Assembly (NCBI GenBank): GCA_025936205.1
Contig: JAICTU010000151.1
Location: forward strand, 1 to 17,704
Length of the DNA stretch: 17,704 nt
Source: Polyangiaceae bacterium
GTDB lineage: Bacteria; Myxococcota; Polyangia; Polyangiales; Polyangiaceae
Reading direction: 5' to 3'
Part shown: positions 8,297 through 15,564 of the stretch, piece after piece
Numbering within the stretch: the stretch's first letter is position 1
Layout of the letters: each line of letters opens with the position of its first letter
Notes under the pieces: model-generated
The model's database searches: none
What the model was told of the DNA's origin: nothing
The model's input: the letters and a program-made list of their open reading frames with translations, nothing else
Position numbers and translations under genes: made by a program

Positions 8297-9027
8297 TCGT
8301 TTGACCGCGCCTCGGGACGAAGTCCCAGGGAAGCATCGTTGGACGGGGTCAGAGTTTCCGCCAGGCGCCTCAGGCCCAGCTCGGTCTTCGAATCCTCGAG
8401 ACGCCCCGTGCGGCACAGGTGCAGCGCGCGGTCGAGAGGGACCGCGACGACGCGCCCATCGCGTTCGAGTGCCGAGCCGTCCAGGCTCGGTTCTCCGCGC
8501 CGCTCCGGGCTCACTTCCAGATGTACGAAGAACAGCCGCTCGCTGATGATCCCCGGCGAGACCCAGGTGGGCGGACCCAGCCACTGAAAGTCGGTCTCCA
8601 GCGCCATGAAGCCCAGCTCCTCGCGCAACTCGCGGCAGCTCGCCCGCAAGACGCCGCCGGTGCTTTGCTCCCCCGGCTCGATCAACCCCGCGGGCAACTC
8701 CCAGAGTGCGCCCGTCTCACGCGCGCCGCCGGGAGAGCGCGCCGGGTCACGGAAGCGTAACGGTGGCCGTAGCGCGCTGCGCAGATACACCCAGCGCTGT
8801 CCATCCTGCATGTAGTGCGCAGCGATCACCACGGCGTCGATCGCGCGCCGATCGACCTCGTCGTAGACGAATGGCTCGCTGCGTTCACCATCCGGGGAGC
8901 GAATCCGCAGACGCCGCCGGATGAGACGCAGGAAGCCTGCCGGGGCGAGCGGCGAGATGTCCTCCACCAGCTCGAGCTCCAGCTCCGGCAAGCGGAGGTC
9001 GACTTCCGGAGGAACGGCGCGGCTCAT
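8293..9027 (-). CDS. Nudix hydrolase with extended Nudix box
   Basis: A 244-aa Nudix-fold pyrophosphohydrolase, probably acting on a nucleoside-diphosphate derivative (ADP-ribose or NAD(P)H type) in the cytoplasm. The Nudix helix-loop-helix lies at 114-140: G114, E120, then R132-E133-L-R-E136-E137-L-G139-F140. The catalytic REUxEExGU half is intact, but the segment between E120 and R132 is 11 residues (QSTGGVLRASC) instead of the usual 7, a four-residue insertion confirmed in the DNA. The preceding GALWELPAGLIEPGE is typical of ADP-ribose pyrophosphatase-like members. ATG start at 9027. It heads the operon leading to NAD kinase, which makes a role in pyridine nucleotide or ADP-ribose turnover plausible, though the substrate cannot be read directly. 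Confidence 0.9.
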   Translation of the reverse strand: MSRAVPPEVDLRLPELELELVEDISPLAPAGFLRLIRRRLRIRSPDGERSEPFVYDEVDRRAIDAVVIAAHYMQDGQRWVYLRSALRPPLRFRDPARSPGGARETGALWELPAGLIEPGEQSTGGVLRASCRELREELGFMALETDFQWLGPPTWVSPGIISERLFFVHLEVSPERRGEPSLDGSALERDGRVVAVPLDRALHLCRTGRLEDSKTELGLRRLAETLTPSNDASLGLRPEARSNE

Positions 9028-9109
9028 GGGGTTCCCGCATTGTCGCCCGCATGCGCCCGTCGCGCCAGGCCTGCTCGCCGTCCCGTTGGGATTTCTCCGC
9101 TTCCGAGCC

Positions 9110-9133
9110 CGCGAGGGTTGTATAAACCTCGCG
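9110..9133. promoter_or_regulatory. Inverted repeat around a TATAAA box in the divergent promoter region
   Basis: CGCGAGG (9110-9116) and CCTCGCG (9127-9133) form a perfect 7-bp inverted repeat around an AT-rich 10-bp spacer, GTTGTATAAA. TATAAA (9121-9126) is a plausible rightward -10 box, and the reverse strand reads TATACA in the same place, so the element could serve both the chaperone operon and the Nudix operon. No clear -35 element is seen. If transcription starts just past it, the GTG at 9133 would be nearly leaderless and a later start of the DUF2760 gene (GTG 9166 or ATG 9172) would be favoured. The symmetry suggests a repressor or activator site. Confidence 0.4.
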
Positions 9134-9678
9134 TGAATTCAGAGATTCTGCCCTGGTGGAGTCGCGTGGGCATGGCCTTCAGCGCGTTCTTCCGCATCCT
9201 GTTCAACGGCCGGCTTGCTGCAGCTTGGGACCGATTTTCGAGCTCATCGGCTGCTGCATCCAAGACGAGTGCAGCGGATGAGGGCATGGGGAGCGGCGCC
9301 TCACCGGACTCGGCGTTGCTGCTGCTGAGCTTGCTGCAAGGGGAGGGCCGTTTCGTCGACTTCGTTCAGCAGGACATCGCCGCGTTTCCCGATGCCGAGG
9401 TGGGCGCCGTGGCGCGGGTCGTGCACGCGGGGTGCCGCAAGGTTTTGCGCGCGCACTTACAGATCGAGCCGATCCGTGCGGAGTCGGAGGGACAGCCGGT
9501 CACACTGGAGGCTGGCTTCGACCCCAGTCGCGTCAAGCTGACGGGCAATGTCGGCGCGCAGAGCCGTGTCCAGGGCGTGCTGCGGCACCGCGGCTGGCAA
9601 GCGTCGGACGTACATTTGCCGCTGCTCGTGGACCCCGCAGGAAGCCGCGTGCTCTGCCCCGCGGAAGTCGAGATGTGA
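9133..9678 (+). CDS. DUF2760 domain protein
   Basis: A 181-aa protein of the DUF2760 family, which from memory is typically encoded next to atypical Hsp70 genes, as here. No biochemical function is known to me. The N-terminal segment (about 7-26, WWSRVGMAFSAFFRILFNG) is hydrophobic/amphipathic and may contact a membrane or partner. A low-complexity Ser/Ala/Gly linker follows (about 36-57). The conserved core begins at LLSLLQGEGRFVDFVQQDI (65-82), with HAGCRKVL, LTGNV (136-140), LRHRGW (150-155) and the terminal CPAEVEM. I use GTG 9133 because the family similarity (SRVGMA) starts before the first ATG. GTG 9166 or ATG 9172, with GGTGGA at 9155-9160, are real alternatives. It is first in a three-gene operon; the next start is one base past its stop. 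Confidence 0.82.
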   Translation: MNSEILPWWSRVGMAFSAFFRILFNGRLAAAWDRFSSSSAAASKTSAADEGMGSGASPDSALLLLSLLQGEGRFVDFVQQDIAAFPDAEVGAVARVVHAGCRKVLRAHLQIEPIRAESEGQPVTLEAGFDPSRVKLTGNVGAQSRVQGVLRHRGWQASDVHLPLLVDPAGSRVLCPAEVEM

Positions 9679-9679
9679 A

Positions 9680-11494
9680 TTGAGCGCTCGATTTTCCGTG
9701 GGCATCGATCTGGGCACCACGCACTGCGCCCTGGCGCAGGCACCGCTCGAGGGCGAGCCGGAGAGCCCGCAAACGCAGCCACTCTTGCAGCTGGTGGCTC
9801 GCGACCGCGTCGATTCGGCGCTGCTGCTGCCCTCCTTCCTGTATTTCCCGCCGCCGACCGAAGGCGGGCTGGCGCTGCCCTGGGATGCCAGTGCTCCGCT
9901 CGCCGTGGGCCAATATGCGCGGCGGCGCGCGGCGGAGTCCCCCGGCCGCGTCGTGGCGAGCTCGAAGAGCTGGCTGTCTCATCCGGCGATCGATCGGCAC
10001 GCGCCGGTGCTGCCAGTGAACGCGGCGGAGGACATCACGACGCTCTCTCCCGTCGAAGCAGCATATCGGCTGCTCGATCACATGAGTGAGGCCTGGCACG
10101 CGCGCAGCGACGGTCTGCGCCTCGGCGATCAGGAGGTGGTGCTGACTGTCCCGGCCTCGTTCGATGCCGCGGCGCGCGAGTGCACGGTGGAAGCGGCGCT
10201 CGCCGCCGGGCTCGACCAGCTGACGCTGCTCGAGGAGCCCCAGGCAGCGTTTTACGCCTGGCTCGATCAGCGCGGTGACGCCTGGCGCACGGATCTGCGC
10301 GTGGGCGATCTGGTGCTGGTCGTGGACGTTGGCGGCGGCACCACGGACTTTGCCGCGATCCAGCTGGGCGAGCAGGACGGCAGCCTGGAGCCGCGGCGCG
10401 TGGCCGTGGGGCAGCACCTGTTGCTCGGCGGCGACAACATGGATCTGGCGCTCGCCCACCTGGTGCGCCAGAAGCTCGAGGCTCAGGGCTCCCTGATCGA
10501 CGCCTGGCAACTCACCGCCCTCACGCATGCCGCGCGCGAGGCAAAGGAGTCGCTGCTGTCGCCTGCCGCGCCCGAGAGCGTGAACGTGGTGGTGCCGAGC
10601 CGCGGCTCGCAGCTGCTCGGGGGTACGCTGCGCTCCACGCTGACGCGCGCGGAGGTGGAACGCTACGTGCTGGACGGCTTCTTTCCGGCAGTGCCTTGGC
10701 AGCAGGAGCCGCGGCAGCGGGCGCGCACGGCGCTGCGCCAGCGCGGTCTGCCGTATGCCGAAGACCCGGCGATCACCACGCAGCTGGCGGCCTTCCTGCG
10801 CGGGCACGCGGGAGTACGGGGAGAAGGGGCGCGCCAGCTGGGGCTGCTCGCCCCGAGCCACGTGTTGTTCAACGGTGGCGTGTTCCGTTCGGAGTTGCTG
10901 CGGCAGCGCTTGCTGGAGACGCTCAACTCCTGGCTCTCCGCCGTGGGCGCTCCTCCGGCGCGCGCGCTGCCCAATGCCGACTACGACTTGGCGGTGGCGC
11001 GGGGCGCCAGCTACTACGGCCTCGTGCGGCGCGGCCGCGGCATCCGCGTGCGCGGCGGTACCGCCCAGGCGTTCTACGTGGGCATCGAGAGTCCAATGCC
11101 GGCCGTGCCTGGCATGGAGCCGCCGATCAATGCATTGTGCGTGGCGCCCTTCGGCATGGAGGAAGGCAGCCGGGTGCTGCTTCCGCAGGCCGAGCTTGCC
11201 GTGGTCGTGGGCGAGTCGGTGACGTTTCGCTTCTTTGGCTCCAGCACGCGGCGCGATGATGCCGCCGGCACGCTGCTGGAGTCCCCCGAGCGCGAGCTGG
11301 AGGAGCTGGCGCCGATCTCGATCACCCTGCCGACTCAGGGCAGGAGCGCCGGCGATCTGGTGGGGGTCACGCTGGAGGCGGTGATCACGGAGGTCGGCAC
11401 GCTGGCCTTATTTGCCAGGCCGCTCGAGCCGCGCGTCGCCGATGAGCACTGGAAGGTCGAGCTCAGTGTGCGCGGTGGAGCCAGCGCGCCGTGA
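9680..11494 (+). CDS. Hsp70-like ATPase A (DnaK/YegD-related)
   Basis: A 604-aa atypical Hsp70 with an intact actin-fold ATPase. Phosphate-1 is VGIDLGTTHC at 7-16, K96 in SSKSWL matches the catalytic lysine of DnaK, LEEPQAAF is at 184-191, phosphate-2 is VDVGGGTTD at 215-223, and the adenosine motif is VLFNGGVF at 395-402. LLLGGDNMDLA stands where DnaK has its LGGEDFD segment. After the ATPase domain the DVTPLSLG interdomain linker is absent; the equivalent position reads AFYVGIES and leads into a beta-rich region to the end, so the substrate domain is not the DnaK type. I choose TTG 9680, one base after the DUF2760 stop; GTG 9698 is possible but cuts into the phosphate-1 strand. It is translationally coupled to Hsp70-B. 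Client and partner are unknown. Confidence 0.9.
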   Translation: MSARFSVGIDLGTTHCALAQAPLEGEPESPQTQPLLQLVARDRVDSALLLPSFLYFPPPTEGGLALPWDASAPLAVGQYARRRAAESPGRVVASSKSWLSHPAIDRHAPVLPVNAAEDITTLSPVEAAYRLLDHMSEAWHARSDGLRLGDQEVVLTVPASFDAAARECTVEAALAAGLDQLTLLEEPQAAFYAWLDQRGDAWRTDLRVGDLVLVVDVGGGTTDFAAIQLGEQDGSLEPRRVAVGQHLLLGGDNMDLALAHLVRQKLEAQGSLIDAWQLTALTHAAREAKESLLSPAAPESVNVVVPSRGSQLLGGTLRSTLTRAEVERYVLDGFFPAVPWQQEPRQRARTALRQRGLPYAEDPAITTQLAAFLRGHAGVRGEGARQLGLLAPSHVLFNGGVFRSELLRQRLLETLNSWLSAVGAPPARALPNADYDLAVARGASYYGLVRRGRGIRVRGGTAQAFYVGIESPMPAVPGMEPPINALCVAPFGMEEGSRVLLPQAELAVVVGESVTFRFFGSSTRRDDAAGTLLESPERELEELAPISITLPTQGRSAGDLVGVTLEAVITEVGTLALFARPLEPRVADEHWKVELSVRGGASAP

Positions 11495-14316
11495 GCGGAG
11501 CGCCGAGCTCGCTCCCCCTCGGCGTCGTCGGCATCGATCTGGGAACGAGTCACACGGCGCTCGGCTGGTCGCTGGTGGGAGCGGCGGCAGAGCCGCTCCA
11601 GCTGCAGATCCCGCAGTGGGTGGCCGGTCGTCGCAGGGCCGCGCAGGCGCTCTTGCCCTCGGTGCTGTATGCGCCGCTGCCGGGCGAAATGCCCAGCGAA
11701 GGCGAGGCCGAGCCGGACTGGGTCGTCGGTGAATACGCTCGCGTTCGCAGTCAGGAGACCCGCGGGCGCGCCATCAGCTCCGCCAAGAGCTGGCTCTGTC
11801 ATTCCGGCGTCGATCGTCTGGGGCCGATCTTGCCCTGGGGCGCAGACGAGCTCGGCGCTGCGCCCAAGCTCTCGCCGGTGGAGGCGAGCCGTCGGCTCCT
11901 GGAGTACGTGCGTGCTCAGTTGCAGGCGCATTTGCAGACGCAGCCGCAGGCGCAGCACCTGGTTCTGGAGCGGCTCAGCGTGGTGCTCACCGTGCCGGCG
12001 TCATTCGACCAGACGGCGCGCAAGCTCACGCTGCTCGCGGCCGAGCGTGCGCAGCTGCGGGTGCGTCTGCTGGAAGAGCCTCAGGCCGCGTTCTACGAGT
12101 ACATCGGGCGCTCGCACGGCGAGCTCGAGGCGCTGGTGCGCCAGCGCGGCCCGCTGCGCGTGCTGATCTGCGACGTCGGCGGTGGCACCACGGATCTGAG
12201 CCTGATCGACGTCGAGCCAGGCGCAGGCCAGCTCGAGTTTCGGCGCAGCGCCGTGGGCCGGCATCTCCTGCTCGGCGGCGACAACATGGATTTGGCGGTG
12301 GCGCGTCGGGCGGAGAGCAAGGGCGGTGCGCCGCTGGAGCCGGACCGCTTTGGGCAGCTGTTGCTCGCCGCGCGCAGCGCCAAGGAGCAATTGCTCTCCG
12401 CAAATGCGCCGGCGACCTTGCCGGTGCGTCTGCTCGGAGCGGGCGCCGAGCTGTTCGGCGGGAGCTGGTCCGCGGAGCTCGAGCGCAGCGAAGTGCAAGA
12501 GCTGGTGCTCGACGGCTTCTTTCCGTTCAGCGCCGCCGGGGAGCTACCGAGCGGACGCCGTTCCGGCATCACGACCTTCGGCCTGCCCTACGAGCGCGAT
12601 CCGTCCATCACGCGCCACATCGCCGAGTTCATTGCGCGTCAGGCCGGTGGCCAGCTGCCGGACGCTCTGCTGCTGAACGGCGGCGTCATGCAGTCCGAGC
12701 TGGTGCAACGGCGTCTGCTCGAGGTGTTTCGGCGCTGGGGTGCGCGCGAGCTGACGCTGCTGTCGGCGCCGGATCCGATGCTGGCCGTGTGTCGGGGCGC
12801 GGTCCGCTTTGGCCTGGCGCTGCTCGGTCAGGGGCCGCGCATCGTGGGCGGGTCCGCCCATGGCTATTATGTGGGGGTCGAATCCGCGAGTGGAGCGGAG
12901 CGCCAGGCGCTGTGTCTGGTGCCCCGGGGCTCGAAGGAAGGCGAGCGACACCAGCTCGGCGATCAGCGCTTCGAGCTGCTGCTCGGGCGTCCCGCCCGCT
13001 TTGAGGTTTACGCCTCGGACACCGCGCTGCACGCGCCGGGCGAGCGGGTGGAGCTCGATGCCGACTATCAACGGCTGCCACCGGTGACCGCCGAGCTGCC
13101 CGCTGCCGCCAGCGAAACGCGCGCCGAGGTCCAGCTGGACGGGGAGCTGAGCGCCGTGGGTACGCTCGAGCTGGGGTGCACGCTGCTCGGTGCCCTTGGC
13201 GGCGAGTCCGCGCCCCGGCGCTTCTCGCTGGCGTTCGAGCTCTCTGCGCCTGCGGCGGGCGCGAATCGTGCTGCGGAGAACCGTGCTCCGAGCGGCCGTG
13301 CTCCGAGCGGCCGTGCTCCGAGCGGCCGTGCCCCGAGCGGCCGTGCCCCGAGCGGTCGTGCGGCGCCCTCTGCAGATACGGCACGGTTCCAGGATGCGGA
13401 GGAGAGCGTGGCGCGCGTCTTCGGCAAGGGGCGCAAGGACGTGCCGGAACGCGAGGTGAAGGACCTGCGCAATTCGCTCGAACGCACGCTGGGACCACGC
13501 AAGAACTGGGATCTCGAGCTCAACCGCCGGCTCGCGGATCGCCTGATCGCCGCCCAGAAAGGCCGCACCCGCTCCGAGGAGCACGAGCGAGCCTTCTGGA
13601 TGCTGCTGGGCTACTGCCTGCGGCCGGGTTTCGGCCACGCGCTGGACGCGCAGCGCATCGGGCAGCTCTGGCCGGCGTTCGATGCCGGGCTGACGCACCG
13701 GGAATCGGAGCGCAACTGGCAACAATACTGGATCGCCTGGCGTCGCATCGTGGGGGGCCTCGACGAAGGGATGCAGCAGCGCATCCGTGAGCTGGCCGAT
13801 CCGGTCCTCGCTCCCGTCGAGCTCAAGCTGAAGAAGGCCAAGGGCTTCCGGCCCCTGGCGCTCGACGAGCTGCTGGGGCTCGCGAGCCAGCTGGAGCGAG
13901 TGGAGCCCGAGGCCAAGAGTCAGCTCGGCCGCTGGCTGCTGGAACGCACCTGGCATGACCGCGATCCGCGGCTCTGGACCCACCTCGGGCGCCTGGGCGC
14001 GCGCGTGCCAGCCTACGCCAGTGCCCACTACGCGCTGAAGGGCAGCAGCGTGGAGCGCTGGGTGGAGCAACTGCTGCGAGAGCGCTGGTCCGAGGTGAAC
14101 ACGGCGGCCGCGTGCGGGCTGAGCCTGGCGCGGGTGACCGGTGATCAGGTGCGAGATCTGGCGCTACGCTGGCGGACCGAAGTCGCGGCAGCCCTGGGCA
14201 AGGCAGGTGCTCCGGAGGCCTGGCAGCACGCCGTGCTGGAGCTCACGCCTCTGAGTGACGCGGAGCGGGTCGAACAGCTCGGCGAGGATTTGCCACTCGG
14301 GCTCCGGTTGCTCTGA
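11491..14316 (+). CDS. Hsp70-like ATPase B fused to a DUF3731-type C-terminal region
   Basis: A 941-aa protein: Hsp70-like ATPase plus a long C-terminal extension resembling the DUF3731 (DnaK-related protein) family. Phosphate-1 is VGIDLGTSHT at 13-22, K99 lies in SSAKSWL, LEEPQAAF is at 194-201, phosphate-2 is CDVGGGTTD at 227-235, and the adenosine motif is LLLNGGVM at 393-400. The position of the DnaK linker reads GYYVGVES (458-465). A beta-rich region runs to about 585, then a flexible linker with five RAPSG repeats (about 598-623). A charged, Trp-rich helical domain follows to the end (KNWDLELNRRLADRL, AFWMLLGYCLRPGFG, NWQQYWIAWRRIVGG). GTG 11491 overlaps the Hsp70-A stop as GTGA. It is clearly paralogous to Hsp70-A over the first 450 residues. 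Its own stop is 27 bp from the convergent coiled-coil gene. Confidence 0.9.
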   Translation: MSGAPSSLPLGVVGIDLGTSHTALGWSLVGAAAEPLQLQIPQWVAGRRRAAQALLPSVLYAPLPGEMPSEGEAEPDWVVGEYARVRSQETRGRAISSAKSWLCHSGVDRLGPILPWGADELGAAPKLSPVEASRRLLEYVRAQLQAHLQTQPQAQHLVLERLSVVLTVPASFDQTARKLTLLAAERAQLRVRLLEEPQAAFYEYIGRSHGELEALVRQRGPLRVLICDVGGGTTDLSLIDVEPGAGQLEFRRSAVGRHLLLGGDNMDLAVARRAESKGGAPLEPDRFGQLLLAARSAKEQLLSANAPATLPVRLLGAGAELFGGSWSAELERSEVQELVLDGFFPFSAAGELPSGRRSGITTFGLPYERDPSITRHIAEFIARQAGGQLPDALLLNGGVMQSELVQRRLLEVFRRWGARELTLLSAPDPMLAVCRGAVRFGLALLGQGPRIVGGSAHGYYVGVESASGAERQALCLVPRGSKEGERHQLGDQRFELLLGRPARFEVYASDTALHAPGERVELDADYQRLPPVTAELPAAASETRAEVQLDGELSAVGTLELGCTLLGALGGESAPRRFSLAFELSAPAAGANRAAENRAPSGRAPSGRAPSGRAPSGRAPSGRAAPSADTARFQDAEESVARVFGKGRKDVPEREVKDLRNSLERTLGPRKNWDLELNRRLADRLIAAQKGRTRSEEHERAFWMLLGYCLRPGFGHALDAQRIGQLWPAFDAGLTHRESERNWQQYWIAWRRIVGGLDEGMQQRIRELADPVLAPVELKLKKAKGFRPLALDELLGLASQLERVEPEAKSQLGRWLLERTWHDRDPRLWTHLGRLGARVPAYASAHYALKGSSVERWVEQLLRERWSEVNTAAACGLSLARVTGDQVRDLALRWRTEVAAALGKAGAPEAWQHAVLELTPLSDAERVEQLGEDLPLGLRLL
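13282..13356. repeat. Five 15-bp tandem repeats in the Hsp70-B linker
   Basis: Three perfect copies of CGTGCTCCGAGCGGC (13282-13326) are followed by two copies with CGTGCCCCG (13327-13356), the last ending in GGT. Each unit encodes one RAPSG step in frame, making a flexible, positively charged linker between the Hsp70 and C-terminal regions. Near-identity at synonymous positions points to recent expansion by slippage, so copy number may vary among strains. Confidence 0.95.
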
Positions 14317-14343
14317 GCCGCGACGTTCCAGCGAGCCGGAGCT

Positions 14344-14547
14344 TCAGGCGGGTTCTTCGCTGCTGCCTTCGGTATCCTGCATGGAGATCAGGGTACCGAG
14401 CGCCTCGATCTCGCGCTTGGTCCGGATCTCTTTCTGCCGAAGCTTCTTGAGCTCCGTGTCCAGCTTGCGCTGCTCGGTTTCGAGCTCGCGCAGGGCGTCC
14501 TTCAACCGATCGCGCTCGGCTTTGAGGGTGTCTGCATCAATCGGCAC
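14344..14547 (-). CDS. Small coiled-coil protein, 67 aa
   Basis: A short, highly charged protein dominated by one long helix: from about residue 6 to 50, LKAERDRLKDALRELETEQ and RKLDTELKKLRQKEIRTKR show heptad spacing of Leu/Ile typical of a coiled coil. An acidic tail follows (DTEGSSEEPA). I recognise no family. A GTG at 14547 is chosen because AAGGAG lies 6 nt upstream (complement of 14554-14559); the upstream extension of the frame has no such support. It follows the diguanylate cyclase gene by 54 bp on the same strand with a hairpin between, so it may be the third gene of the c-di-GMP operon. It could serve as an oligomerisation partner, but that is inference. Confidence 0.8.
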   Translation of the reverse strand: MPIDADTLKAERDRLKDALRELETEQRKLDTELKKLRQKEIRTKREIEALGTLISMQDTEGSSEEPA

Positions 14548-14571
14548 GGCCAACTCCTTGGTGGCCGCGAA

Positions 14572-14590
14572 CGTACTTCTGGGAAGTACG
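14572..14590. promoter_or_regulatory. Perfect 8-bp inverted repeat between cyclase and coiled-coil genes
   Basis: CGTACTTC (14572-14579) and GAAGTACG (14583-14590) pair around TGG. The repeat lies between the FHA-GGDEF stop (14602) and the coiled-coil start (14547). No T-tract follows on the minus strand, so it is not a standard intrinsic terminator. It may be an operator, an mRNA processing or stability hairpin, or a partial attenuator that lowers expression of the last gene. Confidence 0.55.
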
Positions 14591-14601
14591 CGTAGCAATC
14601 C

Positions 14602-15564
14602 TCAATCGCTGGAGATGACCCGGTTTCTGCCGCTTTCCTTGGCGCGGTACAGGCGGCGGTCGGCCGTCTCCAGCAGGACGTCACCCACGGCGCCCTGACA
14701 GCAGCTGAGGCTGGCGCAGCCGAAGGAGGCCGTGACGTTGAAGCGGGTCTCGCCGTGTACCACGGCCTGGCTCTCGAGCGACACCCGGAGCCGATCCGCC
14801 ACTGCCGCCGCGCGCTCCACCGAGATGCCGCGCAGCAGGATCACGAATTCCTCTCCGCCGTAGCGAGCGAGCAGGTCCTCCGTGCGTAGAGCCTTGGCAA
14901 AGACGTTGGTCAGGTGCACCAGCGCCGCGTCCCCGCCCAGATGTCCGTGGGTGTCGTTGACCTTCTTGAAGAAGTCGATGTCGAGCAAGATCACCGACAG
15001 GGGCGTGGCGTGGCGGGCCGCGTAAGCGACCTCGCTGCTGAGCTGCGAAGAAAAATAGTGGCGGTTGAACGCGCCCGTCAGCGGGTCGCGCACGCTCGAC
15101 TCATAGAGTTGCTTGAGGACCCGCTCCTCGTGCGCCGTTGCGGAGGAGAAGCGAAAGGACACGCGCGGGCCGAGGTTGAGCGTGTCGCCGTTGTTCAGCT
15201 CACAAGACGTGACGCGGCGCCCGTTGATGTAGGTGCCGTTGCTGCTGCCCAGATCTTCGACCCAGTACTTCTCTCCGTCGACCGAGATGCGCGCGTGAAA
15301 GCGGCTGATGCCGTCGTCGTCGATGCAGGCTTGATTGTCGGGGTGGCGCCCCAGGCCGAACTTGGGCCCGTCCAGCTTCAGCACTTGGCCGGCATTCTGC
15401 GCATCGGTGCGCACCAGCAACGCGCGATCGCGCTGCTCGGGCGTGGTCATGTGCCGCTGTGTTGCCCGCAGATTATTGGTCTTGTTCACCAGGGCCGCGG
15501 AGGCGGGCCGGGCGCTGGAGAAGGGGACCGCGGGATCAGGCTTGGAAGATGCGGCGTCGCTCAC
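14602..15564 (-). CDS. FHA-GGDEF diguanylate cyclase
   Basis: A 320-aa cytoplasmic protein with an N-terminal FHA (phosphothreonine-binding) domain and a C-terminal diguanylate cyclase, which makes c-di-GMP from two GTP. FHA residues about 64-139: R73 in GLGRH, S87 and H90 in ISRFHARI, and the SSNGTYING loop with N109, all consistent with phosphopeptide binding. The GGDEF domain (about 158-318) has metal-site D195 in LLDIDFFKKVND, D212, and active-site GGEEF at 236-240. An RTED at 227-230 stands exactly five residues before it, the position of the inhibitory c-di-GMP-binding I-site RxxD. It is therefore likely active and product-inhibited. The GTG at 15564 overlaps the REC-EAL stop as GTGA; ATG 15450 is an alternative start just before the FHA domain. 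No membrane segment is present. Confidence 0.92.
   Translation of the reverse strand: MSDAASSKPDPAVPFSSARPASAALVNKTNNLRATQRHMTTPEQRDRALLVRTDAQNAGQVLKLDGPKFGLGRHPDNQACIDDDGISRFHARISVDGEKYWVEDLGSSNGTYINGRRVTSCELNNGDTLNLGPRVSFRFSSATAHEERVLKQLYESSVRDPLTGAFNRHYFSSQLSSEVAYAARHATPLSVILLDIDFFKKVNDTHGHLGGDAALVHLTNVFAKALRTEDLLARYGGEEFVILLRGISVERAAAVADRLRVSLESQAVVHGETRFNVTASFGCASLSCCQGAVGDVLLETADRRLYRAKESGRNRVISSD

What the first reader, a model, noticed from the sequence alone, without database searches (positions are those of the whole stretch)
9133..14316. Three-gene operon of DUF2760 protein and two atypical Hsp70s: a candidate stand-alone chaperone system
Two Hsp70-like ATPases with intact nucleotide-binding motifs are encoded in tandem, coupled by a GTGA overlap, behind a conserved small protein whose stop lies one base before the first Hsp70 start. 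Neither has a DnaK-type linker, and no J-protein or GrpE gene is in the window. From memory, DUF2760 and DUF3731 genes co-occur with such Hsp70s in other bacteria, but I know of no assigned function. The tight order suggests a heteromeric Hsp70 machine with DUF2760 as adaptor or membrane link (inference).
Basis: partly seen in the sequence, partly recalled or inferred. Interest (0 to 1): 0.75.

Follow-up and report, generated by a model that had tools for sequence, protein, structure and literature searches.

The report
Twin Hsp70 machine with membrane partner
Three neighbouring bacterial genes, two unusual Hsp70-type ATPases and a small probably membrane-associated protein, are inherited together in several phyla even where they lie far apart on the chromosome, so they very probably form one chaperone-like system whose working is unknown.

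Summary
Confirmed: DUF2760 (D, 9133-9678), lid-less Hsp70 (A, 9680-11494), Hsp70 with C-terminal DUF3731 (B, 11491-14316). A follows D in 79 of 80 named-genome loci (the other is cut off). In four draws of 767 genomes, D and B occur together in 154, D alone in 3, B alone in 5. In 8 of 34 D-bearing genomes of one phylum D is unlinked from A, yet A and B exist elsewhere in all 8. A and B form one Hsp70 family that keeps the ATPase residues but replaces DnaK N170 in 157 of 157 sequences, T173 in most, and the hydrophobic linker; I infer loss of J-protein control. DUF3731 is predicted as an armadillo/HEAT-like solenoid; DUF2760 has an amphipathic or transmembrane-type N-terminus. My reading: D-A is the core, B a regulatory partner. 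Against an obligate heteromer: Thiohalocapsa and Thiospirillum genomes have D-A without DUF3731. Physical contact is untested. A GrpE relation of DUF2760 found no support. Searches for DUF2760 and DUF3731 found no paper.

The parts
9133..9678 (+). D: DUF2760 protein, 181 aa; N-terminal helical hairpin (model residues 8-42, first helix amphipathic), less certain linker (about 43-57), helical plus beta domain (59-181)
   Evidence: Pfam PF10816 154.5 bits; AF2 model pLDDT 91.4, pTM 0.65; hydrophobic moment
9680..11494 (+). A: atypical Hsp70, 604 aa; intact NBD, no DnaK-type linker, C-terminal domain of about 145 aa, no helical lid
   Evidence: Pfam HSP70 66.4 bits; alignments; C-terminal domain
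11033..11491 (+). A linker region and C-terminal domain; homologous to the same region of B, not significantly similar to DnaK SBD-beta
11491..14316 (+). B: Hsp70 of the same family with C-terminal DUF3731, 941 aa; GTGA overlap with A
   Evidence: Pfam HSP70 45 bits, DUF3731 235 bits
13281..13361 (+). 15-bp repeat, 5.4 copies, encoding RAPSG repeats; probably a flexible tether between B's Hsp70 part and DUF3731
   Evidence: TRF; translation
13414..14313 (+). B C-terminal alpha-solenoid: DUF3731 plus about 50 residues before it

Best explanation
D, A and B form one conserved ATP-driven, Hsp70-derived system. Shown by computation: co-inheritance of the three; A and B belong to one distinct Hsp70 family; catalytic residues are kept while J-protein-responsive residues and the hydrophobic allosteric linker are replaced; DUF3731 is predicted as an alpha-solenoid; D has an amphipathic or transmembrane-type N-terminus. 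Inferred: D anchors the system at the inner membrane and acts as A's dedicated partner in place of a J-protein (about 0.4). A is the client- or target-binding motor. B, a relative of A carrying an armadillo-like arm instead of a lid, binds A and adjusts its nucleotide cycle or brings clients, much as Hsp110 or HspBP1 do for eukaryotic Hsp70 (about 0.3 for the exchange-factor reading). The role is stress or developmental protein quality control at or near the membrane. Functional unit: about 0.95. Direct D-A contact: about 0.65. Direct A-B contact: about 0.5.
For: D/B co-occurrence: both 90, D-only 1, B-only 3 of 146 (Fisher 1e-34); 34, 0, 1 of 194 (4e-37); 8, 1, 1 of 229; 22, 1, 0 of 198 at the curated cut-off. 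Co-inheritance without linkage: A found at 730-780 bits elsewhere in 8 of 8 genomes where D stands apart, while Hsp70s other than A and B score below 90. D-A gap of -4 bases in 57 of 93 loci. A/B NBD identity 47% against 26% to other M. xanthus Hsp70s. N170 is E in 157/157; T173 is Q in 94/94 A and 54/63 B; E171, D194, T199, D201 kept in 157/157. R167-D393-D481 is the contact set a J-domain acts on in DnaK (PMC7289447, passages). Solenoid. D-A-B on three plasmids, one beside groES-groEL. Deletion of the probable B of M. xanthus, MXAN_5323, lowers sporulation and H2O2 survival (PMC8265645).
Against: D-A occurs without any DUF3731 match in six Thiohalocapsa/Thiospirillum genomes, so B is not obligatory. 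D-only and B-only genomes exist (G154, G004, G655; G035, G343). No complex was modelled. MXAN_5323 was matched to B by length (925 aa) and by its description as a long divergent Hsp70, not by sequence; its mutant phenotypes are mild and shared with the other hsp70 mutants of that study. A's C-terminal domain is not demonstrably a peptide-binding SBD (P 0.06; no significant PDB match), so chaperone activity is inferred. B keeps the R167 equivalent in 37 of 63, so the J-site is not uniformly lost in B.
Confidence: 0.55

Rival explanations
1. Same pathway, no complex: the three proteins act at separate steps of one response and are co-inherited for that reason, without direct contact.
For: All three unlinked or partly unlinked in 8 genomes; DUF3731 missing from six D-A genomes; B lies more than 500 bases from A in 9 of 80 loci and is absent from the stretch held in 19.
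Against: Four-base D-A overlap in 57 of 93 loci and A after D in 79 of 80 favour translational coupling of partners, at least for D-A.
Confidence: 0.25
2. Not a chaperone: A and B are actin-fold ATPase switches (sensor or scaffold) that use their own C-terminal domain for a specific target, with D as membrane receptor.
For: Linker and J-site replaced; C-terminal domain not recognisable as SBD-beta; no lid in A; A also matches MreB_Mbl (29.1 bits, cut-off 27).
Against: The NBD profile matches solved DnaK best (93.8 bits); the C-terminal domain aligns with SBD-beta over a stretch, though not significantly; one plasmid copy sits beside groESL; the probable B mutant has an oxidative-stress phenotype.
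Confidence: 0.25
3. DUF2760 is a diverged GrpE-type nucleotide exchange factor that opens A's nucleotide-binding domain.
Against: hhalign P 0.2-0.5; 53 and 65 of 150 column-shuffled GrpE profiles score at least as high; rmsd of the 3a6m alignment 19.5; GrpE is not among the 25 of 37 Pfam families shown for 100 DUF2760 members.
Confidence: 0.1

Closest known systems
DnaK-DnaJ-GrpE (canonical bacterial Hsp70)
   Same: Hsp70 NBD with the catalytic residues; works with partner proteins (inferred here)
   Different: No N170/T173 of the J-site, no hydrophobic linker, no helical lid in A; co-inherited partner is DUF2760, not a J-protein or GrpE
Hsp110/Grp170 with Hsp70 (eukaryotes)
   Same: Two Hsp70-type proteins, one larger with an extended C-terminal alpha-region
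   Different: Bacterial; A and B are each other's close relatives; the alpha-region is a predicted solenoid, not a helix bundle; exchange activity unknown
HspBP1/Sil1 armadillo exchange factors
   Same: Armadillo-like solenoid of similar size (NEF domain about 260 residues, PMC4753570, passage) in an Hsp70 context
   Different: DUF3731 is fused to an Hsp70; no sequence relation found in PDB or in the Pfam families listed; HspBP1 not among the 50 rows shown
Ribosome-associated complex Ssz1-Zuo1 (recalled, no call)
   Same: Hsp70-type protein in a stable heteromer
   Different: That complex contains a J-protein; here the ATPase residues are intact in both Hsp70s

Membership tests
Canonical DnaK-type Hsp70 | ATPase catalytic residues (E171, D194, T199, D201) | tested here: met
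   157 of 157 A and B sequences (set not made non-redundant)
Canonical DnaK-type Hsp70 | J-protein interface residues N170 and T173, with R167 | tested here: not met
   N170 replaced by E in 157/157; T173 by Q in 94/94 A and 54/63 B; R167 kept in 5/94 A but 37/63 B. R167 from PMC7289447; N170 and T173 as interface residues are recalled
Canonical DnaK-type Hsp70 | Hydrophobic interdomain linker (LLLDVTP) | tested here: not met
   Absent in the 16 A and 16 B sequences aligned; mostly an R-[IV]-x-G-G-[TS]-A type segment instead
Canonical DnaK-type Hsp70 | SBD-beta peptide-binding domain | tested here: inconclusive
   hhalign P 0.056 (A) and 0.092 (B); four weak unrelated PDB matches of the domain profile, E 0.078-1.2
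Canonical DnaK-type Hsp70 | SBD-alpha helical lid | tested here: not met
   A ends after its C-terminal domain; B carries DUF3731 instead
GrpE | Sequence-profile relation of DUF2760 to GrpE | tested here: not met
   hhalign not significant, shuffles score as high; small profiles, so distant kinship is not excluded
GrpE | GrpE fold | tested here: inconclusive
Hsp110/Grp170 | Hsp70-like protein with extended alpha-region that acts as exchange factor for a partner Hsp70 | not testable with these tools
   B's architecture fits loosely; activity needs biochemistry
HspBP1/Sil1 armadillo exchange factors | Armadillo-repeat solenoid | tested here: inconclusive

The most novel reading that the evidence does not exclude
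D-A-B is a J-protein- and GrpE-independent Hsp70 machine held at the membrane by DUF2760, in which B is a bacterial Hsp110/HspBP1-like exchange factor: an Hsp70 whose lid has become an armadillo-like arm that opens A's nucleotide site. A 2015 review says bacteria have only one known type of exchange factor, GrpE (PMC4753570, passage).
Probability: 0.2. Interest if true: 0.85.

Novelty: new variant of a known kind. Interest (0 to 1): 0.62.

Why it matters
Hsp70s are thought to need a J-protein and, usually, an exchange factor. A widespread bacterial Hsp70 family that keeps the ATPase but has replaced much of the J-site and the linker, and that travels with its own two partners, would show another way to run the Hsp70 engine and give two unnamed domains (DUF2760, DUF3731) a testable role. 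M. xanthus DK1622, where a deletion of the probable B has been published, makes it directly testable.

Tried and rejected
Natural fusions: ORFs of 1561-1564 aa carrying DUF3731 in four genomes looked like A-B fusions; they are B in a long stop-free frame, with A in a separate ORF of 600-921 aa. Fusions were not searched systematically.

DUF2760 as a GrpE homologue: suggested by a look at motifs and by the helix-plus-beta fold; profile comparison, shuffles and fold search gave no support. Kept only as a functional rival.

DUF2760 against PDB by sequence: two BurrH chains only (E about 1e-8), many short sub-threshold stretches in a repeat protein, judged an artefact. DUF3731 profile: four weak PDB matches, E 0.14-0.88, unrelated. 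HspBP1 was not among the rows shown; this is no evidence against it.

Co-folding of D with A or A with B was not run; the tool takes single chains. Reading a stop as a residue in loci where D and A share a frame was considered and not done.

Promoter and terminator scan of 8700-14700: no promoter-like site; two terminator-like sites, both inside B, where shuffles give 2.3 on average.

Literature: DUF2760 and DUF3731 gave 0 papers; Pfam accessions and 'DnaK-related protein' gave 5 papers, all matched on the latter; four were read by passage.
Full report
What is there. The window encodes DUF2760 (D, 9133-9678), an Hsp70-type protein (A, 9680-11494) and a second Hsp70-type protein with a C-terminal DUF3731 domain (B, 11491-14316) on the + strand. 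Around the set lie a penicillin-binding transpeptidase, a PhoH-like protein, enolase, a glycosyltransferase, an Omp85-like protein, a NAD kinase, a Nudix protein, an FHA-GGDEF-type protein and a response regulator with EAL domain; the nearest genes on both sides are on the other strand.

Conserved order. A protein search with D gave 5220 relatives among 6212 candidates, the best 120 listed. A scan of named genomes with a DUF2760 alignment gave 80 loci (80 kept of 119 confirmed relatives), with record titles that name Myxococcota or Deltaproteobacteria, Pseudomonadota, Verrucomicrobia and Planctomycetota. A lies directly downstream of D on the same strand in 79 of 80; in L024 the contig ends 166 bases after D. 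B begins within 500 bases of A in 42, further away in 9, is not in the stretch held in 19, and the stretch ends soon after A in 9. These loci were found through relatives fairly close to the window's DUF2760, so the count leans to close kin. In the 93 loci where both D and A could be read whole (start codons chosen by rule), the gap is -4 bases in 57 and between -60 and +20 in 79.

Co-inheritance. To escape that bias I counted the two Pfam families in draws of whole genomes. Phylum of the M. xanthus AM003 genome (L069), 146 genomes: D 91, B 93, both 90. Phylum of the Verrucomicrobiales genome (L046), 194 genomes: D 34, B 35, both 34; the extra B, G524, is a fragment with a stop. Class of Thiohalocapsa marina (L029), 229 genomes: D 9, B 9, both 8. 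Phylum of the Planctomycetota genome (L073), 198 genomes: at the curated cut-off D 23, B 22, both 22; one sub-threshold match each in other genomes (G760, G769) is left out. Sum of 767: both 154, D only 3 (G154, G004, G655), B only 5 (G035, G108, G114, G524, G343), neither 605. Fisher tests were run for the first two groups (1e-34, 4e-37); genomes are related, so these are not independent trials. In two of the B-only cases (G108, G114) the B gene lies at a contig end where A and D would be; G035 shows no A. In the four PF10816 and four PF12531 group searches none of the 14 control genomes matched.

Co-inheritance without linkage. Of the 34 D-bearing genomes in the Verrucomicrobiales phylum, A is next to D in 26 and not in 8. 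A profile of A finds an A elsewhere in all 8 (730-780 bits; Hsp70s other than A and B below 90), and all 8 have B. In G480 the three genes lie at 2.10, 3.90 and 4.16 Mb of one 5.73 Mb contig. In G516 A sits next to B, on another contig than D. This is the strongest evidence that the set is functional and not a hitchhiking operon. Counter-cases: of 25 genomes chosen mainly because no B was seen beside D-A, 8 had no DUF3731 match at all: five Thiohalocapsa, Thiospirillum and two metagenome-assembled genomes (L051, L078); A was confirmed in the first six. So D-A is the core and B can be missing.

Plasmids. tblastn with B finds 11 plasmid-collection records, some of them very large replicons. Four were opened: D-A-B in a Comamonadaceae plasmid and in two Bradyrhizobium plasmids typed as conjugative, one with groES-groEL downstream; and D-A without B in the stretch shown of a Thiodictyon plasmid, among genes annotated as anti-phage. 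The module can be carried as a unit and reaches Alphaproteobacteria.

What A and B are. The nucleotide-binding domains of 16 A and 16 B are 47% identical to each other on average and 26% to nine other M. xanthus Hsp70s; A and B together sit on a very long branch; A is monophyletic (support 0.86), B is not resolved as a clade with this distant outgroup. Their C-terminal domains are homologous (hhalign 3.5e-41) but not significantly similar to SBD-beta of DnaK-type proteins (P 0.06 and 0.09) and have no significant PDB match. At positions mapped to DnaK, E171, D194, T199 and D201 are kept in 157 of 157; N170 is E in 157 of 157; T173 is Q in 94 of 94 A and 54 of 63 B; R167 is kept in 5 of 94 A and 37 of 63 B; six other M. 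xanthus Hsp70s keep all three (sequences not made non-redundant). The linker is replaced, mostly by an R-[IV]-x-G-G-[TS]-A type segment, in the 32 sequences aligned. In DnaK, R167, D393 of the linker and D481 form the contact that the J-domain disturbs (PMC7289447, passages). That N170 and T173 belong to the J interface is recalled. Inference: A, and less clearly B, is not run by an ordinary J-protein.

DUF2760. Modelled with 100 sequences: mean pLDDT 91.4, pTM 0.65; two N-terminal helices, a looser linker, three helices and a small beta part. The window's first helix is amphipathic (moment 0.51); 38 of 144 relatives have a 19-residue stretch of transmembrane-type hydrophobicity in the first 60 residues, none in the last 123 residues (starts chosen by rule, set not made non-redundant). 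No fold match. A likeness to the GrpE beta-domain was tested and found no support. In some solitary loci D lies beside a YugP-like zinc peptidase and a membrane transporter, again membrane company.

Biology. In M. xanthus AM003, B reads 925 aa from an ATG preceded by CGGAGG. MXAN_5323 of DK1622 is a 925-aa Hsp70 distant from DnaK (PMC8265645: abstract, parts 1 and 2 of 6 of the text, section 8, and passages). Identity by sequence was not tested. Its deletion is reported, with those of the other hsp70 genes studied, to reduce sporulation and H2O2 survival; swarming and predation are near normal; it does not replace E. coli dnaK; it is one of two other hsp70 genes excepted from 'unchanged or decreased' after heat in the transcriptome, although qPCR saw no obvious increase; it rises in development. 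Vibrio cholerae VC1373 and VC1374 are called DnaK-related, and VC1373-1375 appears once in a screen for genes repressed in biofilms (PMC5816637 and PMC9201469, passages); whether they are D-A-B was not tested.

Verdict. That D, A and B are one system is well supported; that they touch, and how they work, is inference. I rate it a new variant of a known kind (Hsp70 machines).

Noticed in passing
L145, L146, L147, L148 (upstream of solitary DUF2760): Where DUF2760 is unlinked from the Hsp70s it follows a YugP-like zinc metallopeptidase (PF04298, Pfam-checked in L145; similar by eye in L146, L147); a Mem_trans-type transporter is near it in L145 (Pfam-checked) and, by eye, in L147 and L148.
   Followed up: partly
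L035:12370-15766, L037:4053-5249; similar ORFs in L025, L034, L056, L079: In Competibacter-group genomes genes lie between A and B: a DEAD helicase with a weak phosphoribosyltransferase match (L035) and a DprA-like protein (L035, L037).
   Followed up: partly
L077:9779-10624: A protein kinase gene lies between A and a second, truncated Hsp70-type ORF of this family in one Polyangiaceae genome.
   Followed up: no
L208 (plasmid pTs485, Thiodictyon): D-A without B sits among genes annotated as anti-phage (DUF1156, phospholipase D-like) and a TIR protein.
   Followed up: no
L207 (plasmid pCB82_1, Bradyrhizobium): Plasmid D-A-B is followed by groES and groEL, which hints at a mobile protein-quality-control cargo.
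   Followed up: no
window 14344-14547, - strand: Small ORF (67 codons, GTG start), read by eye, that looks like a charged coiled coil, directly downstream of B on the other strand.
   Followed up: no
window 9680-11494 and 11491-14316; alignment A2: A and the window's B share a segment absent from DnaK by eye (GLPYAxDPxITRHLAAFL in A); A has a conserved PAVPGxEPP segment near the start of its C-terminal domain. Neither has an assigned role.
   Followed up: no
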